Positions 38,939 through 48,051 of a DNA stretch of 55,054 bases are shown here, one piece after another. Position numbers and translations under genes: made by a program. Position 1 is the stretch's first letter, and each line of letters starts with the position of its first letter. The notes under the pieces are model-generated. The model was not told the origin of the DNA. It saw only the letters and a program-made list of their open reading frames with translations, and made no database searches. The DNA lies in assembly GCA_003141525.1 (NCBI GenBank), contig PLML01000092.1, positions 37,380-92,433 of the forward strand, given 5' to 3'. The stretch is from Bacteroidales bacterium (GTDB lineage: Bacteria; Bacteroidota; Bacteroidia; Bacteroidales; VadinHA17).

Positions 38939-40012
38939 TCAACAGCATCTTAGTACTAGAGGATTCTCCGGTATTCCAATATCTTCTCCATTCCGTCCTT
39001 TGTATTTTTTCCCAGAGTCGTAGATTATTCCCAATTTGTCAAGTAAAGGTTCAACTGCCACCTGATGAGTCTGCAAACCTATATCCCATGGATTATAACC
39101 TAAAAGTAGTCCTGCCAATTCTTCATAGGTCAATACCGGAATTCCATAACCATTTTCACCATAAGTTTTGCTTTTCATTTCGGCAATTACATATTGCCAC
39201 CGGTCGAGAAAAAAGGTGCAGCCTGGGCAGTTGGCAATTATAAGATCGGGTTTAAAAGGCTGCATCGAATCGAATTTCTTTTTTGAATTAGTGACAGAGT
39301 AAGATCTGTTCGATTTCAGCAGGTATTGCCTGAACCCGAATCCACAGCAATGGCGTCGTTCGGGATAGTCCACTTGCTTTCCTCCCCATTCGTCAATTAA
39401 GCCAGCCAGCACATAAGGATATTCAGCGCCTCCGATACCTTCTTGTGGAAAAATCTTAGCATAATGACAGCCAATATGATCAACAACTTTAATAGGTTCT
39501 TCGCTATTTTGATTAATCAACCTGAATTTTGCTTTTGCTGCAATCTCTTTACGGAATTTGTAAATAATATCGCTTGCATGAACAAGGTTTTTTGGTATTT
39601 CAAATGTTTTGCCGGTGGCCCGTTTTAATGCAACACGTGTTTTTTGTTCTGTTTCCGGGAAATGATTCCAGGTATCCATTACCTCAACATAAATACCAAA
39701 TGAGGTAACGCACGATGCAATAAAATTTTCATACCCGGCTTCGTTCATCAGGGAAAATTGGCGAGCTACCACGGTCATAATTGTTTCGAAAGGAATAATA
39801 CCCGAATGGTAGGCAATACCCGTACAGGTTGTCTGTCTTGCATCGTCATAAATATCTTTCTCCAGTTCATTTCTAAGGATATTCAAATACAGATTTTCCG
39901 CTGCCGGGAAGAAATTCTGCCTGATGCAACTGCGTGCAAAATAATAATGATCATCAGCTATCTCTTTCTGGTATGCTGCCCAGATTTCATTTTTCCTTGT
40001 CTTCATGAACAA
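38939..40012 (-). CDS. HdrB-like heterodisulfide reductase subunit (CCG domain)
   Basis: DHIGCHYAKIFP ... RRHCCGFGFRQYLL ... NCPGCTFFLDRW; N-terminal CCG motif degenerate. Confidence 0.87.
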   Translation of the reverse strand: MFMKTRKNEIWAAYQKEIADDHYYFARSCIRQNFFPAAENLYLNILRNELEKDIYDDARQTTCTGIAYHSGIIPFETIMTVVARQFSLMNEAGYENFIASCVTSFGIYVEVMDTWNHFPETEQKTRVALKRATGKTFEIPKNLVHASDIIYKFRKEIAAKAKFRLINQNSEEPIKVVDHIGCHYAKIFPQEGIGGAEYPYVLAGLIDEWGGKQVDYPERRHCCGFGFRQYLLKSNRSYSVTNSKKKFDSMQPFKPDLIIANCPGCTFFLDRWQYVIAEMKSKTYGENGYGIPVLTYEELAGLLLGYNPWDIGLQTHQVAVEPLLDKLGIIYDSGKKYKGRNGEDIGIPENPLVLRCC

Positions 40013-40041
40013 ATTTATTTATTAAGCAGCAAATGTGGTAG

Positions 40042-40728
40042 TTATTTGTTATACAGATATTTAAAATAATCATCATTCCCATCATTAAATTCAATGTTTA
40101 GTTCTTTTGCCTTGCCAGAAGAATATTTTTCGATCTTTTCAAACCGTTGGGTTGCACCGGTTTCATCAAATATCTTTTTAAGATCATTAAGCGATTCCTG
40201 AGATATATTGCGAAGTGTCCCGGATTGTTCTTTATTATAGCTTGTTCCAAGACGTTCCAGTATTGACTCCTTGTTTTGTCTTAACCAATCCCATATAGGC
40301 CCCTGTTCCGGATACATTTCAGTATCAATTTCATCAATAAATACACAATAACCATATTTCAAAATATGTTCTCCCACAATCCGTTTAACAGCCAATTGTT
40401 TTCTTCCCTGTTGACTCTCAATAAAAAAGCCTGTTTCAATAGATAATGCCCGTAATGCCTGAATAATATAACAGGGTGTATTTCCACGAGGACATCGTGT
40501 TTTACATGAAAGGCATTCACCACACATCCATATTGTATCGCTCTTAAGCAACTTTTCCAGCTCAGCTTCATCTTTTTGTTGTACAATATTGACAACTATA
40601 CGCGGGTCGTAATCGCTCACTTCAGCAGCAGGGCATATTGCAGTGCAAACTCCGCAGTTGAAACAAGATTTCAACCCTTCAAGGTAGCGGACATCTTTCT
40701 CAAGTTCTTTGTACAAATCTTTCATCAT
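40042..40728 (-). CDS. HdrC-like 4Fe-4S subunit
   Basis: CFNCGVCTAICPAAEVSDYDPR and CGECLSCKTRCPRG. Confidence 0.9.
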   Translation of the reverse strand: MMKDLYKELEKDVRYLEGLKSCFNCGVCTAICPAAEVSDYDPRIVVNIVQQKDEAELEKLLKSDTIWMCGECLSCKTRCPRGNTPCYIIQALRALSIETGFFIESQQGRKQLAVKRIVGEHILKYGYCVFIDEIDTEMYPEQGPIWDWLRQNKESILERLGTSYNKEQSGTLRNISQESLNDLKKIFDETGATQRFEKIEKYSSGKAKELNIEFNDGNDDYFKYLYNK

Positions 40729-41873
40729 TTCTTATACGCTGCATTCTGTAAATTTGATAAATACACTGCAAAAGGTCGGTAGGCAAGGTGTGCCCATTTA
40801 GAGAATGGCACTTCAATCATCAGCATTGGAACCAGGATCATAAAATGAATTACATAGACATAATAAGTCGCATATGGAAGTCCTGATATCCTGAAAATAT
40901 GTACAAGTATGCCTGTAATAACGGTTCCTGAAAGAAGAAAAAGGAAGGTCCAGTCAGTGAAATGTGTGTGTTTGTTGTTCTCCTGGTCTCTTTTTATTCT
41001 TCCATAAACGAAAAATATCAGTCCAAAAGAAAGTCCAAAAGTGGCATAATATCCAAAAATCCTTTGAGGATGCCACCAGGGATGAATAAAATCTGTCTGA
41101 AACCATTCAAGAAATACCACGATCATTGTAAATAATAACACATAACCTGACATTAGCAACCAGTGAGATATCCAATAGGGACTTGCTTTTATATTAAGCC
41201 TCCCAAGTCTTGTTTTCCGATTGCTTTTAGTGAACCGCCATTGTGTTACGAAATGAAAAATAAGCTTCCAGAACTGTGTAAAGTAAAGCTTTAAGGGCAC
41301 TCTAATTTTCTTTTCACCATGAAAAACCATTAAATACATCCTTAAAATATTGGATATCAGGAAAAAAGACAGAATGCCTGCCATAATCCAGTCTCCTATT
41401 TCTATTTGTTTCCATGGAGCAAAGGTATTGAGCTTAACACCTCCCTGAGCAGTAAGTTCTGTGGTCATTGGTCCATGGAATAATATGAAAAGCACAAGCA
41501 CCATGGCTGCCAAAAATCCGATGGCTGCAAGTTCCCATGCCTTTGAAGTATAGAATTTCCGGGAAAGTCCAGTCCAGTCATATTTTGAGGTCTGCCATCG
41601 GCGCAGTGACATCATCAGTTCTCCGGGTTGTGCATCTCTGGGGCATGAACTGCTGCATTCACCGCAATAGTAACATAACCAGGGATCCAATGAAATTTGA
41701 ATCTCATTATCAAGACCAAGTACACTGTATCTCACCATTTTCCTGGGGAATGAATTTTCTTCATCCGACATTGCACAAACCGCGGTGCATGTACCACAGT
41801 TATAGCATGCGTTCATGTCAAATGCACCATATTTTTTTAATATCTCAGAAAATCCAGGATTTAATTCAGGCAT
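40725..41873 (-). CDS. QmoC-like membrane subunit (HdrC 4Fe-4S domain fused to HdrE/NarI-type membrane domain)
   Basis: CYNCGTCTAVCAMSDEENSFPRKMVRYSVLG, CYYCGECSSSCPRDAQPGELMMSLRRW, then multiple TM helices with conserved His. Confidence 0.88.
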   Translation of the reverse strand: MPELNPGFSEILKKYGAFDMNACYNCGTCTAVCAMSDEENSFPRKMVRYSVLGLDNEIQISLDPWLCYYCGECSSSCPRDAQPGELMMSLRRWQTSKYDWTGLSRKFYTSKAWELAAIGFLAAMVLVLFILFHGPMTTELTAQGGVKLNTFAPWKQIEIGDWIMAGILSFFLISNILRMYLMVFHGEKKIRVPLKLYFTQFWKLIFHFVTQWRFTKSNRKTRLGRLNIKASPYWISHWLLMSGYVLLFTMIVVFLEWFQTDFIHPWWHPQRIFGYYATFGLSFGLIFFVYGRIKRDQENNKHTHFTDWTFLFLLSGTVITGILVHIFRISGLPYATYYVYVIHFMILVPMLMIEVPFSKWAHLAYRPFAVYLSNLQNAAYKK

Positions 41874-41884
41874 CTCAATTTTTA

Positions 41885-46899: not shown

Positions 46900-47325
46900 T
46901 TATTCAGTTCTCAGTTCATTTTGTATGCTTCCCATTTCCGTTAGTGAATTCATAAAAGCTTTCATGTGACTTACAAAAGGGTCAGCACATACTGAACAGA
47001 TTGCTGCCATTTTAATTCTTGCAACATTAATTCCTTCAATTTTCATCGCTTCCTGTGCAGATTTAATTGTTACAGATGTAATATCGGAACAATCAGAGCG
47101 ATATGCGCAATCCGTGCCATCGCTGGCAATAAATACACCATCAATACCTCTTTTTAGTGCATGTAAAATCCACCTGGGTTTTATACTGCTGGTACAGGGG
47201 ACCGTAATGTTGTAAACTGAAGGAGGATAATGTTTCTTCAACAATCCGGCAAGATCAATTGCCGGATCTGAAATTCTCTCCGAAGAAAACACCAGTATCT
47301 TTGGTACAAATTGTACATCAGCCAT
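46900..47325 (-). CDS. MvhD/HdrA-associated hydrogenase iron-sulfur subunit D family protein
   Basis: VPCTSSIKPRWILHALKRGIDGVFIASDGTDCAYRSDCSDITSVTIKSAQEAMKIEGINVARIKMAAICS. Confidence 0.8.
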   Translation of the reverse strand: MADVQFVPKILVFSSERISDPAIDLAGLLKKHYPPSVYNITVPCTSSIKPRWILHALKRGIDGVFIASDGTDCAYRSDCSDITSVTIKSAQEAMKIEGINVARIKMAAICSVCADPFVSHMKAFMNSLTEMGSIQNELRTE

Positions 47326-47336
47326 TTTTTGCTTGT

Positions 47337-47588
47337 CTATTTCTTCAGATAAATAGTAAAATAGCCTGATTCTTCAAAATCACCAAGATATTGATAACCC
47401 CTTTTTTCCGCCCACCTGGGGACGTCCTTCTTTGTTCCTTCATCTGATGAAAGAATTTCCATAATTCCTCCGTCAGGAACATCAGCTATGGCCTGTTTTA
47501 CCGCCAGAAGAGGTCCGGGACAAGCAGTTCCGCGGGCATCTACTACTTTATCTGCTTTCAGTTTTTTAAGTTCTTCAGTTGTCATCAT
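47337..47588 (-). CDS. TusA/SirA-like sulfurtransferase
   Basis: ADKVVDARGTACPGPLLAVKQAIADVPDGGIMEILSSDEGTKKDVPRWAEKRGYQYLG (CPxP motif). Confidence 0.92.
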   Translation of the reverse strand: MMTTEELKKLKADKVVDARGTACPGPLLAVKQAIADVPDGGIMEILSSDEGTKKDVPRWAEKRGYQYLGDFEESGYFTIYLKK

Positions 47589-47631
47589 TTTCTTGTTTAT
47601 AAATCATTTCTGAGTCTTGTAGTGACTAATT

Positions 47632-48051
47632 TTAGATAAAGAGATTCAAATCAGCTACTTCAGCAGTTTGGATATATTGGGCGATCCCACAAATGTCATC
47701 GGCCAGGTCAATAAAATCGTCAAGTTTTTCTCCATGCCAGACTTTACCTGCAAAACCGCAGATGTGGATTTTTACACTTGTCAGCTCTTTTGCTTTGCGG
47801 AAAGCTTCAGTCCAGTGAGGAGTCCCAAGACGTTTCAATGAAGCCAGAAAATCATCTTTTTTGTCAGTAATTTCTGCCACTCTATCATTGACCATTGCAT
47901 TTTCTTTTTTAAATGCAAAAGCAGCCTGAAGAAGTATAAAGATCTCAACATCCATATCTTCAGCAGCAGCACCGCCAAGGATAACCCCGGCAGCAGTCAG
48001 TTTGTCCACGCTACCTGTATAGAGCGCAAGGCATAATTTTTTCTTTTCCAT
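47632..48051 (-). CDS. DsrE family peroxiredoxin-like/sulfur-carrier protein
   Basis: LCLALYTGSVDKLTAAGVILGGAAAEDMDVEIFILLQAAFAFKK ... VKIHICGFAGKVWHGEKLDDFIDL. Confidence 0.85.
   Translation of the reverse strand: MEKKKLCLALYTGSVDKLTAAGVILGGAAAEDMDVEIFILLQAAFAFKKENAMVNDRVAEITDKKDDFLASLKRLGTPHWTEAFRKAKELTSVKIHICGFAGKVWHGEKLDDFIDLADDICGIAQYIQTAEVADLNLFI

What the first reader, a model, noticed from the sequence alone, without database searches (positions are those of the whole stretch)
38939..48051. DsrE-TusA-MvhD-HdrA-HdrA-QmoC-HdrC-HdrB operon: Hdr/Qmo-like sulfur electron-transfer complex in a Bacteroidales-like genome
Eight consecutive minus-strand genes encode two sulfur-carrier-type proteins (DsrE, TusA), an MvhD-like protein, two large HdrA flavoproteins, a QmoC-like membrane subunit, HdrC and HdrB. 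No dsrAB, aprAB or sat genes are in the window. The arrangement suggests persulfide from TusA/DsrE exchanging electrons with quinone and NAD(P)H, analogous to sHdr or Qmo but with a distinct composition. A PsrABC-YeeE-rhodanese operon lies just beyond, divergently oriented.
Basis: partly seen in the sequence, partly recalled or inferred. Interest (0 to 1): 0.8.

Follow-up and report, generated by a model that had tools for sequence, protein, structure and literature searches.

The report
Sulfur-carrier-linked Qmo-like quinone complex
Many uncultured gut- and sediment-type bacteria (order Bacteroidales) carry a conserved, apparently undescribed gene cassette that joins two sulfur-carrying proteins to a membrane electron-transfer complex related to one used by sulfate reducers, although this bacterium seems to lack the sulfate-reduction genes; it probably moves electrons between carried sulfur and the cell's quinone pool.

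Summary
The eight genes are present as described. Loci were chosen by QmoC alone, yet tusA lies just upstream in 68 of 69 intact copies; hdrC/hdrB accompany only 5 of 71. The assembly (93.7% complete) has no dsrA, aprA or sat hit. hdrA1 is not a plain HdrA: an NfnB/GltD-type domain with an NADP-type motif is inserted in it, the known "type III HdrA" architecture; most relatives, including all same-genus ones seen, lack the insert. HdrA1 keeps the two proposed bifurcation residues; HdrA2 has lost the lysine. MvhD has a family-specific CxxC (70/70). In the window this cassette appears to have replaced the genus's own version in place, with edges near 40736 and 48082. Best reading: a Qmo-like menaquinone oxidoreductase whose partner is sulfane sulfur on TusA/DsrE instead of AprAB, with NADP(H) (here) or ferredoxin (relatives) as third partner. 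Direction of electron flow, substrate and complex formation are unproven. It is neither a canonical Qmo nor sHdr. New variant of a known kind, widespread; I found no prior description in the open-licence library.

The parts
47632..48051 (-). dsrE: small DsrE-family sulfurtransferase, 139 aa; putative active Cys98
   Evidence: Cys98 conserved 32/32
47337..47588 (-). tusA: sulfur carrier, 83 aa, CPGP motif (Cys23)
   Evidence: Cys 67/67
46900..47325 (-). mvhD-like, 141 aa; family-specific C44, C73, C79 and CxxC (C110, C113)
   Evidence: CxxC 70/70, absent from the methanogen MvhD, QmoB and Flx-type MvhD compared
44158..46872 (-). hdrA1: QmoA-like HdrA (residues 1-155 and 626-904) with inserted NfnB/GltD-like NADP-type domain (about 156-625); 'type III HdrA' architecture
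41885..44161 (-). hdrA2: full-length HdrA homologue (758 aa) without the bifurcation lysine (K409 to H), with C-terminal winged-helix tail (about 671-758)
40725..41873 (-). qmoC-like: two 4Fe-4S motifs plus membrane domain, invariant H237, H343, H362
40042..40728 (-). hdrC: optional add-on, overlaps qmoC by 4 bp
38939..40012 (-). hdrB: optional add-on; N-terminal CCG degenerate, C-terminal CCG intact, C-terminal CC tail
48143..48158 (.). palindrome TGTGATATATCTCACA, predicted Crp-type operator between the divergent crp gene and dsrE
   Evidence: TGTGAN6TCACA with at most 1 mismatch in 42 of 46 homologous intergenic regions
48177..48854 (+). Crp/Fnr-family regulator, conserved divergent partner of the cassette
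   Evidence: divergent Crp beside 42 of 71 copies
48998..49699 (+). second Crp/Fnr-family regulator (neighbour)
49717..54698 (+). neighbouring PhsA/PsrA-like molybdoenzyme, ferredoxin subunit, NrfD-like subunit and two half-size YeeE proteins; rhodanese follows. Neighbour, not part of the conserved cassette

Best explanation
The cassette dsrE-tusA-mvhD-hdrA1-hdrA2-qmoC encodes a membrane-anchored, Qmo-like menaquinone oxidoreductase whose soluble partner is not APS reductase but sulfane sulfur (persulfide) carried by TusA and DsrE. Proposed path: QmoC exchanges electrons with menaquinone through its membrane domain; the HdrA pair wires these to MvhD; MvhD, with its family-specific CxxC, exchanges two electrons with TusA/DsrE persulfide (R-S-SH + 2e- + 2H+ <-> R-SH + H2S). 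HdrA1 holds the FAD with the proposed bifurcation residues, so a third, low-potential partner is expected: ferredoxin in the ordinary form, NADP(H) in the form with the NfnB/GltD insert, as in this window. HdrA2 is then a non-bifurcating conduit. I favour the reductive direction in a fermenting anaerobe (menaquinol plus NADPH or ferredoxin reducing carrier-bound sulfur to sulfide), but the opposite direction, sulfide/persulfide electrons split to menaquinone and NADP+, is nearly as likely; with textbook potentials both lie close to equilibrium. Shown: gene content, order, conservation, lost/kept residues, operator site, absence of dsrA/aprA/sat hits. Inferred: complex formation, the TusA-MvhD contact, the third partner, the substrate and the direction.
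For: TusA just upstream in 68 of 69 intact copies found by a QmoC search, with DsrE or DsrE2 beside it in 63; the other QmoC-containing gene order in the same genomes (HdrA-QmoC-HdrA2-MvhD) has no TusA. Catalytic-type Cys invariant in TusA (67/67), DsrE (32/32) and DsrE2 (38/38); MvhD CxxC 70/70 and absent from the compared MvhDs. HdrA1 keeps K409 in all copies and E356 (D in two) while HdrA2 has H/Y/F/A at K409, residues proposed to mark bifurcating HdrA (PMC12054007). NADP-type motif in all 16 inserts. No dsrA, aprA, sat hit. In several genomes YeeE/TusA/rhodanese/DsrE genes directly adjoin the cassette (L072, L086, L094). Own genome encodes a type III sulfide:quinone reductase above its curated cut-off, a DsrC/TusE protein and a DsrE2; type III SQR co-occurs with the cassette (26/66 vs 64/329, p=0.001, not corrected for relatedness).
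Against: No biochemical data. Residues K409/E356 are a proposed, not absolute, marker. The cassette has no classic disulfide-reducing (CCG) subunit in 66 of 71 copies, so the sulfur-exchange site is a guess. QmoC-type membrane subunits can run either way. Most cassette genomes (40 of 66) lack a detected type III SQR, and YeeE does not co-occur genome-wide. TusA also serves tRNA thiolation and cofactor synthesis, so an indirect role is possible.
Confidence: 0.45

Rival explanations
1. Oxidative (sHdr-like) reading: the complex oxidises TusA-bound sulfane sulfur to sulfite or beyond, passing electrons to menaquinone and NADP+/ferredoxin.
For: TusA/DsrE feed sHdr and rDsr in known oxidisers (PMC6067878, PMC13293266); type III SQR in the genome and its co-occurrence.
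Against: sHdr is reported as always associated with LbpA (PMC6067878); no lipoyl protein seen among the neighbouring genes scanned, and the cassette has no HdrB in 66 of 71 copies. No dsrA/aprA/sat hit to take sulfite further.
Confidence: 0.15
2. A redox-balancing complex (NADPH or ferredoxin : menaquinone, bifurcating) in which TusA/DsrE only supply sulfur for assembly or regulation, e.g. for the clusters or a cofactor.
For: HdrA/QmoC/NfnB chemistry is complete without a sulfur substrate; TusA has biosynthetic roles elsewhere; related QmoC-HdrA-MvhD gene sets without TusA exist in the same order.
Against: The TusA-free sister arrangement shows that such complexes do not need TusA for assembly; TusA/DsrE linkage is nearly invariant across divergent families, and the MvhD CxxC is specific to the TusA-linked type among those compared.
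Confidence: 0.25
3. A degenerate or displaced Qmo still serving an undetected APS reductase.
For: QmoC/QmoA similarity; the assembly is 93.7% complete, so a missing gene is possible.
Against: No aprA or sat hit; QmoC family scores 144-221 bits against 406-510 for Apr-linked QmoC; split QmoB, lost lysine in HdrA2; TusA in place of Apr in all families seen.
Confidence: 0.05
4. In the window, HdrC-HdrB form a second active site joined to the cassette, making a Qmo-Hdr hybrid that reduces a disulfide such as a DsrC/TusE or small-thiol disulfide.
For: hdrC overlaps qmoC by 4 bp; hdrCB follows in three same-genus genomes and one other; C-terminal CCG intact; a DsrC/TusE homologue exists on another contig beside a second HdrCB.
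Against: Absent from 66 of 71 copies; N-terminal CCG has lost two Cys; the DsrC homologue has only the C-terminal Cys.
Confidence: 0.2

Closest known systems
QmoABC (quinone-interacting membrane-bound oxidoreductase of sulfate reducers and green sulfur bacteria)
   Same: Two HdrA-type flavoproteins, an MvhD domain and a QmoC-type membrane subunit in one operon.
   Different: TusA/DsrE instead of sat-aprBA; MvhD separate instead of fused to QmoB; HdrA2 without K409; QmoC below the curated cut-off.
Type III HdrA / HdrA9-11 (HdrA with inserted NfnB/GltD domain; ANME-1 and Bathyarchaeota; PMC9012536, PMC12054007)
   [quoted passage not shown] K409 and E356 kept.
   Different: Bacterial, QmoA-sized core, inside a quinone- and TusA-linked operon; second Rossmann motif GGGNxA (NADP-type) whereas the archaeal ones were reported as GXGXXG (NAD-type).
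sHdr (sulfur-oxidising Hdr-like complex with LbpA)
   Same: Hdr proteins linked to TusA/DsrE sulfur carriers.
   Different: No LbpA seen nearby, no paired HdrB/HdrC in the core, has QmoC and MvhD.
YTD cluster / DsrEFH type II (PMC12998232, PMC13293266)
   Same: TusA and DsrE-family carriers, sometimes with YeeE/YedE nearby.
   Different: The cassette adds a full Hdr/Qmo electron-transfer complex; the cited work links YTD to dsr-bearing Desulfobacterota/Nitrospirota.
HdrABC-FlxABCD and MvhADG-HdrABC
   Same: HdrA-MvhD module logic.
   Different: No HdrB in the core, no hydrogenase or FlxA; membrane quinone subunit instead. A Flx-like set is on another contig of this genome.

Membership tests
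QmoABC | QmoC reaches curated equivalog cut-off (NF038018, 300 bits) | tested here: not met
   191 bits; relatives 144-221; Apr-linked controls 406-510
QmoABC | QmoB = HdrA fused to MvhD | tested here: not met
   separate mvhD and hdrA2 genes in the window and relatives
QmoABC | genetic link to sat/aprAB | tested here: not met
   none in the window; no aprA or sat hit in the assembly
QmoABC | QmoA-like short HdrA with K409/E356 | tested here: met
   core halves align over QmoA length; residues kept; window copy carries an insert
Type III HdrA | NfnB/GltD domain inserted in HdrA's ferredoxin domain | tested here: met
Type III HdrA | K409 and E356 conserved | tested here: met
Type III HdrA | NAD-type GXGXXG motif (as reported for archaeal members) | tested here: not met
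   GGGNVA (GXGXXA) here and in 16/16 fused copies
sHdr | lipoate-binding protein LbpA encoded with the hdr genes | tested here: not met
   none among the window genes scanned; rest of genome not searched for LbpA
sHdr | paired HdrB1/HdrB2 and HdrC1/HdrC2 | tested here: not met
   one HdrB and one HdrC in the window; none in 66 of 71 copies
HdrABC | HdrB with two complete CCG motifs | tested here: not met
   N-terminal motif lacks two Cys, C-terminal motif intact
YTD cluster | yedE-tusA-dsrE with conserved hypothetical genes in one cluster | tested here: not met
   tusA/dsrE and yeeE are in separate operons in the window
Functional Qmo-like quinone reductase/oxidase | quinone activity | not testable with these tools
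   needs biochemistry

The most novel reading that the evidence does not exclude
TusA/DsrE-bound persulfide is a direct substrate of a flavin-based bifurcating or confurcating complex that also uses menaquinone and NADP(H)/ferredoxin: a third, Apr-free and Dsr-free way of coupling sulfur to the quinone pool, widespread in uncultured Bacteroidales and able to swap its low-potential partner by gaining or losing one domain.
Probability: 0.3. Interest if true: 0.8.

Novelty: new variant of a known kind. Interest (0 to 1): 0.6.

Why it matters
The cassette was found in at least 66 of 395 sampled genomes of a large, mostly uncultured order, and two further copies in another family of the phylum (L029, L031). 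If it links sulfane sulfur to menaquinone, many Bacteroidales from anoxic habitats take part in sulfur cycling while being invisible to the usual markers (dsr, apr, sat, sox, sHdr). It also offers a natural experiment in electron bifurcation: near-identical operons with and without an NADP-type domain in HdrA1, and one HdrA of the pair that has lost the bifurcation lysine. The conserved Crp-type operator gives a concrete regulon to test.

Tried and rejected
(1) Canonical Qmo of a sulfate reducer: rejected, no dsrA/aprA/sat hit and QmoC below cut-off. (2) sHdr: rejected on composition. (3) HdrB as the general sulfur site: rejected, absent in 66/71 copies. (4) YeeE/Psr as constant partners: not supported genome-wide. 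(5) The HdrA-NfnB fusion as new: rejected, described in ANME-1 and as type III HdrA. (6) A single gain of the insert on the HdrA1 core tree: the fused copies fall in two places although the inserts themselves form one group against other GltD domains (the one 'other' row inside, L015, is a truncated fused protein that my script mislabelled). Loss in several lineages or domain exchange could explain this; not resolved. (7) The genome-contig scan with a single protein gave only four loci; an alignment would have reached further, and the scan could not be repeated. (9) Two family scans failed on bad coordinates. (10) Literature searches found no description of a TusA-linked Qmo-like operon, but the library holds only open-licence papers; the review on HdrA(BC) modules by Appel et al. 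2021 could not be read.
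Full report
Observation. The eight ORFs are at the stated coordinates on the minus strand and fall into the stated families (translations). DsrE is the weakest assignment by Pfam (24.8 bits against a cut-off of 25) but matches the DsrE-like structure 2qs7 at 4.6e-14. The first HdrA is not plain: residues 1-155 and 626-904 are HdrA, and about 156-625 match NfnB/GltD-type NAD(P)H proteins. In same-genus genomes the same gene is 431-435 aa, QmoA-sized, without this domain.

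Genome context. The window lies in a 4.82-Mb assembly of 241 contigs, 93.7% complete. Named close relatives are Bacteroidales MAGs.

The conserved unit. A search with a QmoC alignment found QmoC-like proteins in 98 of 395 genomes of the order and in 20 of 399 of the phylum; three of the latter, all from the best-represented family f35, were read and show sat-aprBA-qmoABC. I took the neighbourhoods of the better-scoring hits and labelled genes by BLAST. Of 71 HdrA1 copies with mvhD upstream, tusA is within three genes upstream in 68 of the 69 not cut by a contig end, DsrE or DsrE2 beside it in 63, hdrA2 next in 69, qmoC in 67, a divergent Crp gene in 42, and hdrC or hdrB in only 5. Because loci were selected by QmoC, the tusA link is not built in. 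The set is biased towards high QmoC scores; about 20 weaker hits were not read. A second QmoC arrangement (HdrA-QmoC-HdrA2-MvhD) in the same order has no tusA. The cassette is in at least 66 of the 395 genomes, and in another family of the phylum (L029, L031).

Residues. Using Methanothermococcus HdrA as ruler, HdrA1 keeps K409 in all copies checked and E356 in all but two (D), residues proposed to mark bifurcating HdrA (PMC12054007). HdrA2 has H, Y, F or A at K409 in every cassette member examined, whereas QmoB of the Apr-linked operons keeps K. TusA Cys23 (67/67), DsrE Cys98 (32/32), the DsrE2 equivalent (38/38) and two cysteines of MvhD in a CxxC (70/70) are invariant. That CxxC is absent from the methanogen MvhD, from QmoB and from Flx-type MvhD that I aligned, while the N-terminal cysteines of methanogen MvhD are gone. 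Whether the five cysteines bind a cluster or leave a redox dithiol is unknown. The insert carries GGGNxAxD...YRR in 16 of 16 fused copies; by the criterion used in PMC12054007 this is the NADP-type.

Insert history. The inserts form one group against other GltD domains (100/99), but on the HdrA1 core tree fused copies lie in two places. Repeated loss, or exchange of cassettes, is possible. The architecture itself is known: HdrA9-11 of ANME-1 (PMC9012536) and type III HdrA (PMC12054007).

A swap in place. Against same-genus genomes G003 and G011, hdrC, hdrB and the Crp gene are 82-91% identical and the further flank 67-72%, but dsrE to qmoC only 38-63%; against L012, a Bacteroidales MAG whose Crp gene matches at only 49%, dsrE to qmoC are 67-90%. 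At DNA level the same-genus match of 84% ends at 40735 and the L012 match runs 40738-48082 in two blocks. So the genus's own cassette seems to have been replaced by a distant fused one between flanking genes. Direction of transfer, and whether dsrE shares that history (it is also 84-87% identical to L021 and L056), are not settled.

Regulation. A TGTGAN6TCACA palindrome with at most one mismatch lies between the Crp gene and dsrE in 42 of 46 regions, including 48143-48158 here. This predicts, but does not show, control by that regulator.

Surroundings. Downstream of the two crp genes are a PhsA/PsrA-like operon with half-size YeeE proteins and a rhodanese. In other families the cassette adjoins YeeE, TusA and rhodanese genes (L072, L086, L094), which supports a sulfur role; genome-wide, YeeE does not co-occur (p=0.42) while type III SQR does modestly (26/66 vs 64/329, p=0.001, not corrected for relatedness). 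On another contig this genome has a type III SQR (611 bits, cut-off 525), a DsrC/TusE protein with only the C-terminal Cys, a DsrE2 and a second HdrCB with HdrA- and HdrD-like genes.

Interpretation. By anatomy it works like Qmo: a quinone-facing subunit, two HdrA flavoproteins and MvhD. By membership it is not Qmo: no Apr link, split QmoB, QmoC scores of 144-221 bits against 406-510 for Apr-linked ones. It is not sHdr either. Since TusA/DsrE replace Apr in the operon, and classic CCG sites are missing from most copies, I propose that TusA hands persulfide to MvhD's CxxC. This step is inference, as are the complex itself, the third partner and the direction. With textbook potentials (menaquinone about -75 mV, persulfide/sulfide about -270 mV, NADPH about -320 to -370 mV, ferredoxin about -420 to -500 mV; own knowledge), coupling quinone with NADP(H) or ferredoxin brings the mean close to persulfide/sulfide, so either direction is feasible.

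Novelty. Parts and the HdrA-NfnB fusion are known. The TusA-linked, Apr-free Qmo-like cassette, its MvhD CxxC, its HdrA2 lysine loss and its operator were not found described in the open-licence library searched, which is not proof of absence.

Noticed in passing
G000 contig C38, L009:5583-15087: Second sulfur hub in the genome: type III SQR, DsrC/TusE with only the C-terminal Cys, DsrE2, class V aminotransferase, divergent from glutathione peroxidase, HdrC, HdrB, HdrA-like, HdrC-like and HdrD-like genes.
   Followed up: partly
G000 contig C75, L008:3971-10409: HdrC-HdrB-HdrA-MvhD followed by Flx-like genes including an NAD-binding FAD protein: a probable HdrABC-FlxABCD-type set.
   Followed up: partly
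L089, L097, L106, L107, L115-L120: Another recurrent QmoC arrangement in the order, HdrA(600 aa)-QmoC-HdrA2-MvhD-(~330 aa), sometimes beside a Crp gene, without TusA.
   Followed up: no
L099 (G730 contig C7): Fused and unfused versions of the cassette lie on one contig facing each other, about 5 kb apart.
   Followed up: no
L030:9956-14428: A 1490-aa HdrA protein with GltD domain and C-terminal ferredoxin region next to QmoC and MvhD.
   Followed up: no
L036 (G401): sat-aprBA-QmoC operon directly beside PsrC-YeeE-YeeE-rhodanese; the two genes between aprA and qmoC were not identified as QmoA/QmoB by my search.
   Followed up: no
window 38939-40012: HdrB ends in a Cys-Cys tail shared with the same-genus copies (L019, L023) but not with the C38 or L078 copies; the ORF as listed starts at TTG, with an ATG two codons in that matches the relatives' starts.
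   Followed up: no
L023:4695-5327, L019:3881-4801: In same-genus genomes an unrelated gene (DUF4405/cytochrome b561-like, or an ARMT1-like phosphatase) sits between qmoC and hdrC; it is missing in the window.
   Followed up: partly
L016:3601-6344: hdrB and qmoC are each split into two ORFs in G003, either frameshifts or assembly errors.
   Followed up: no
window 41885-42150 and ~92-aa genes in relatives: A winged-helix-like segment is fused to HdrA2 here and is a separate small gene between hdrA2 and qmoC in most relatives; role unknown.
   Followed up: partly
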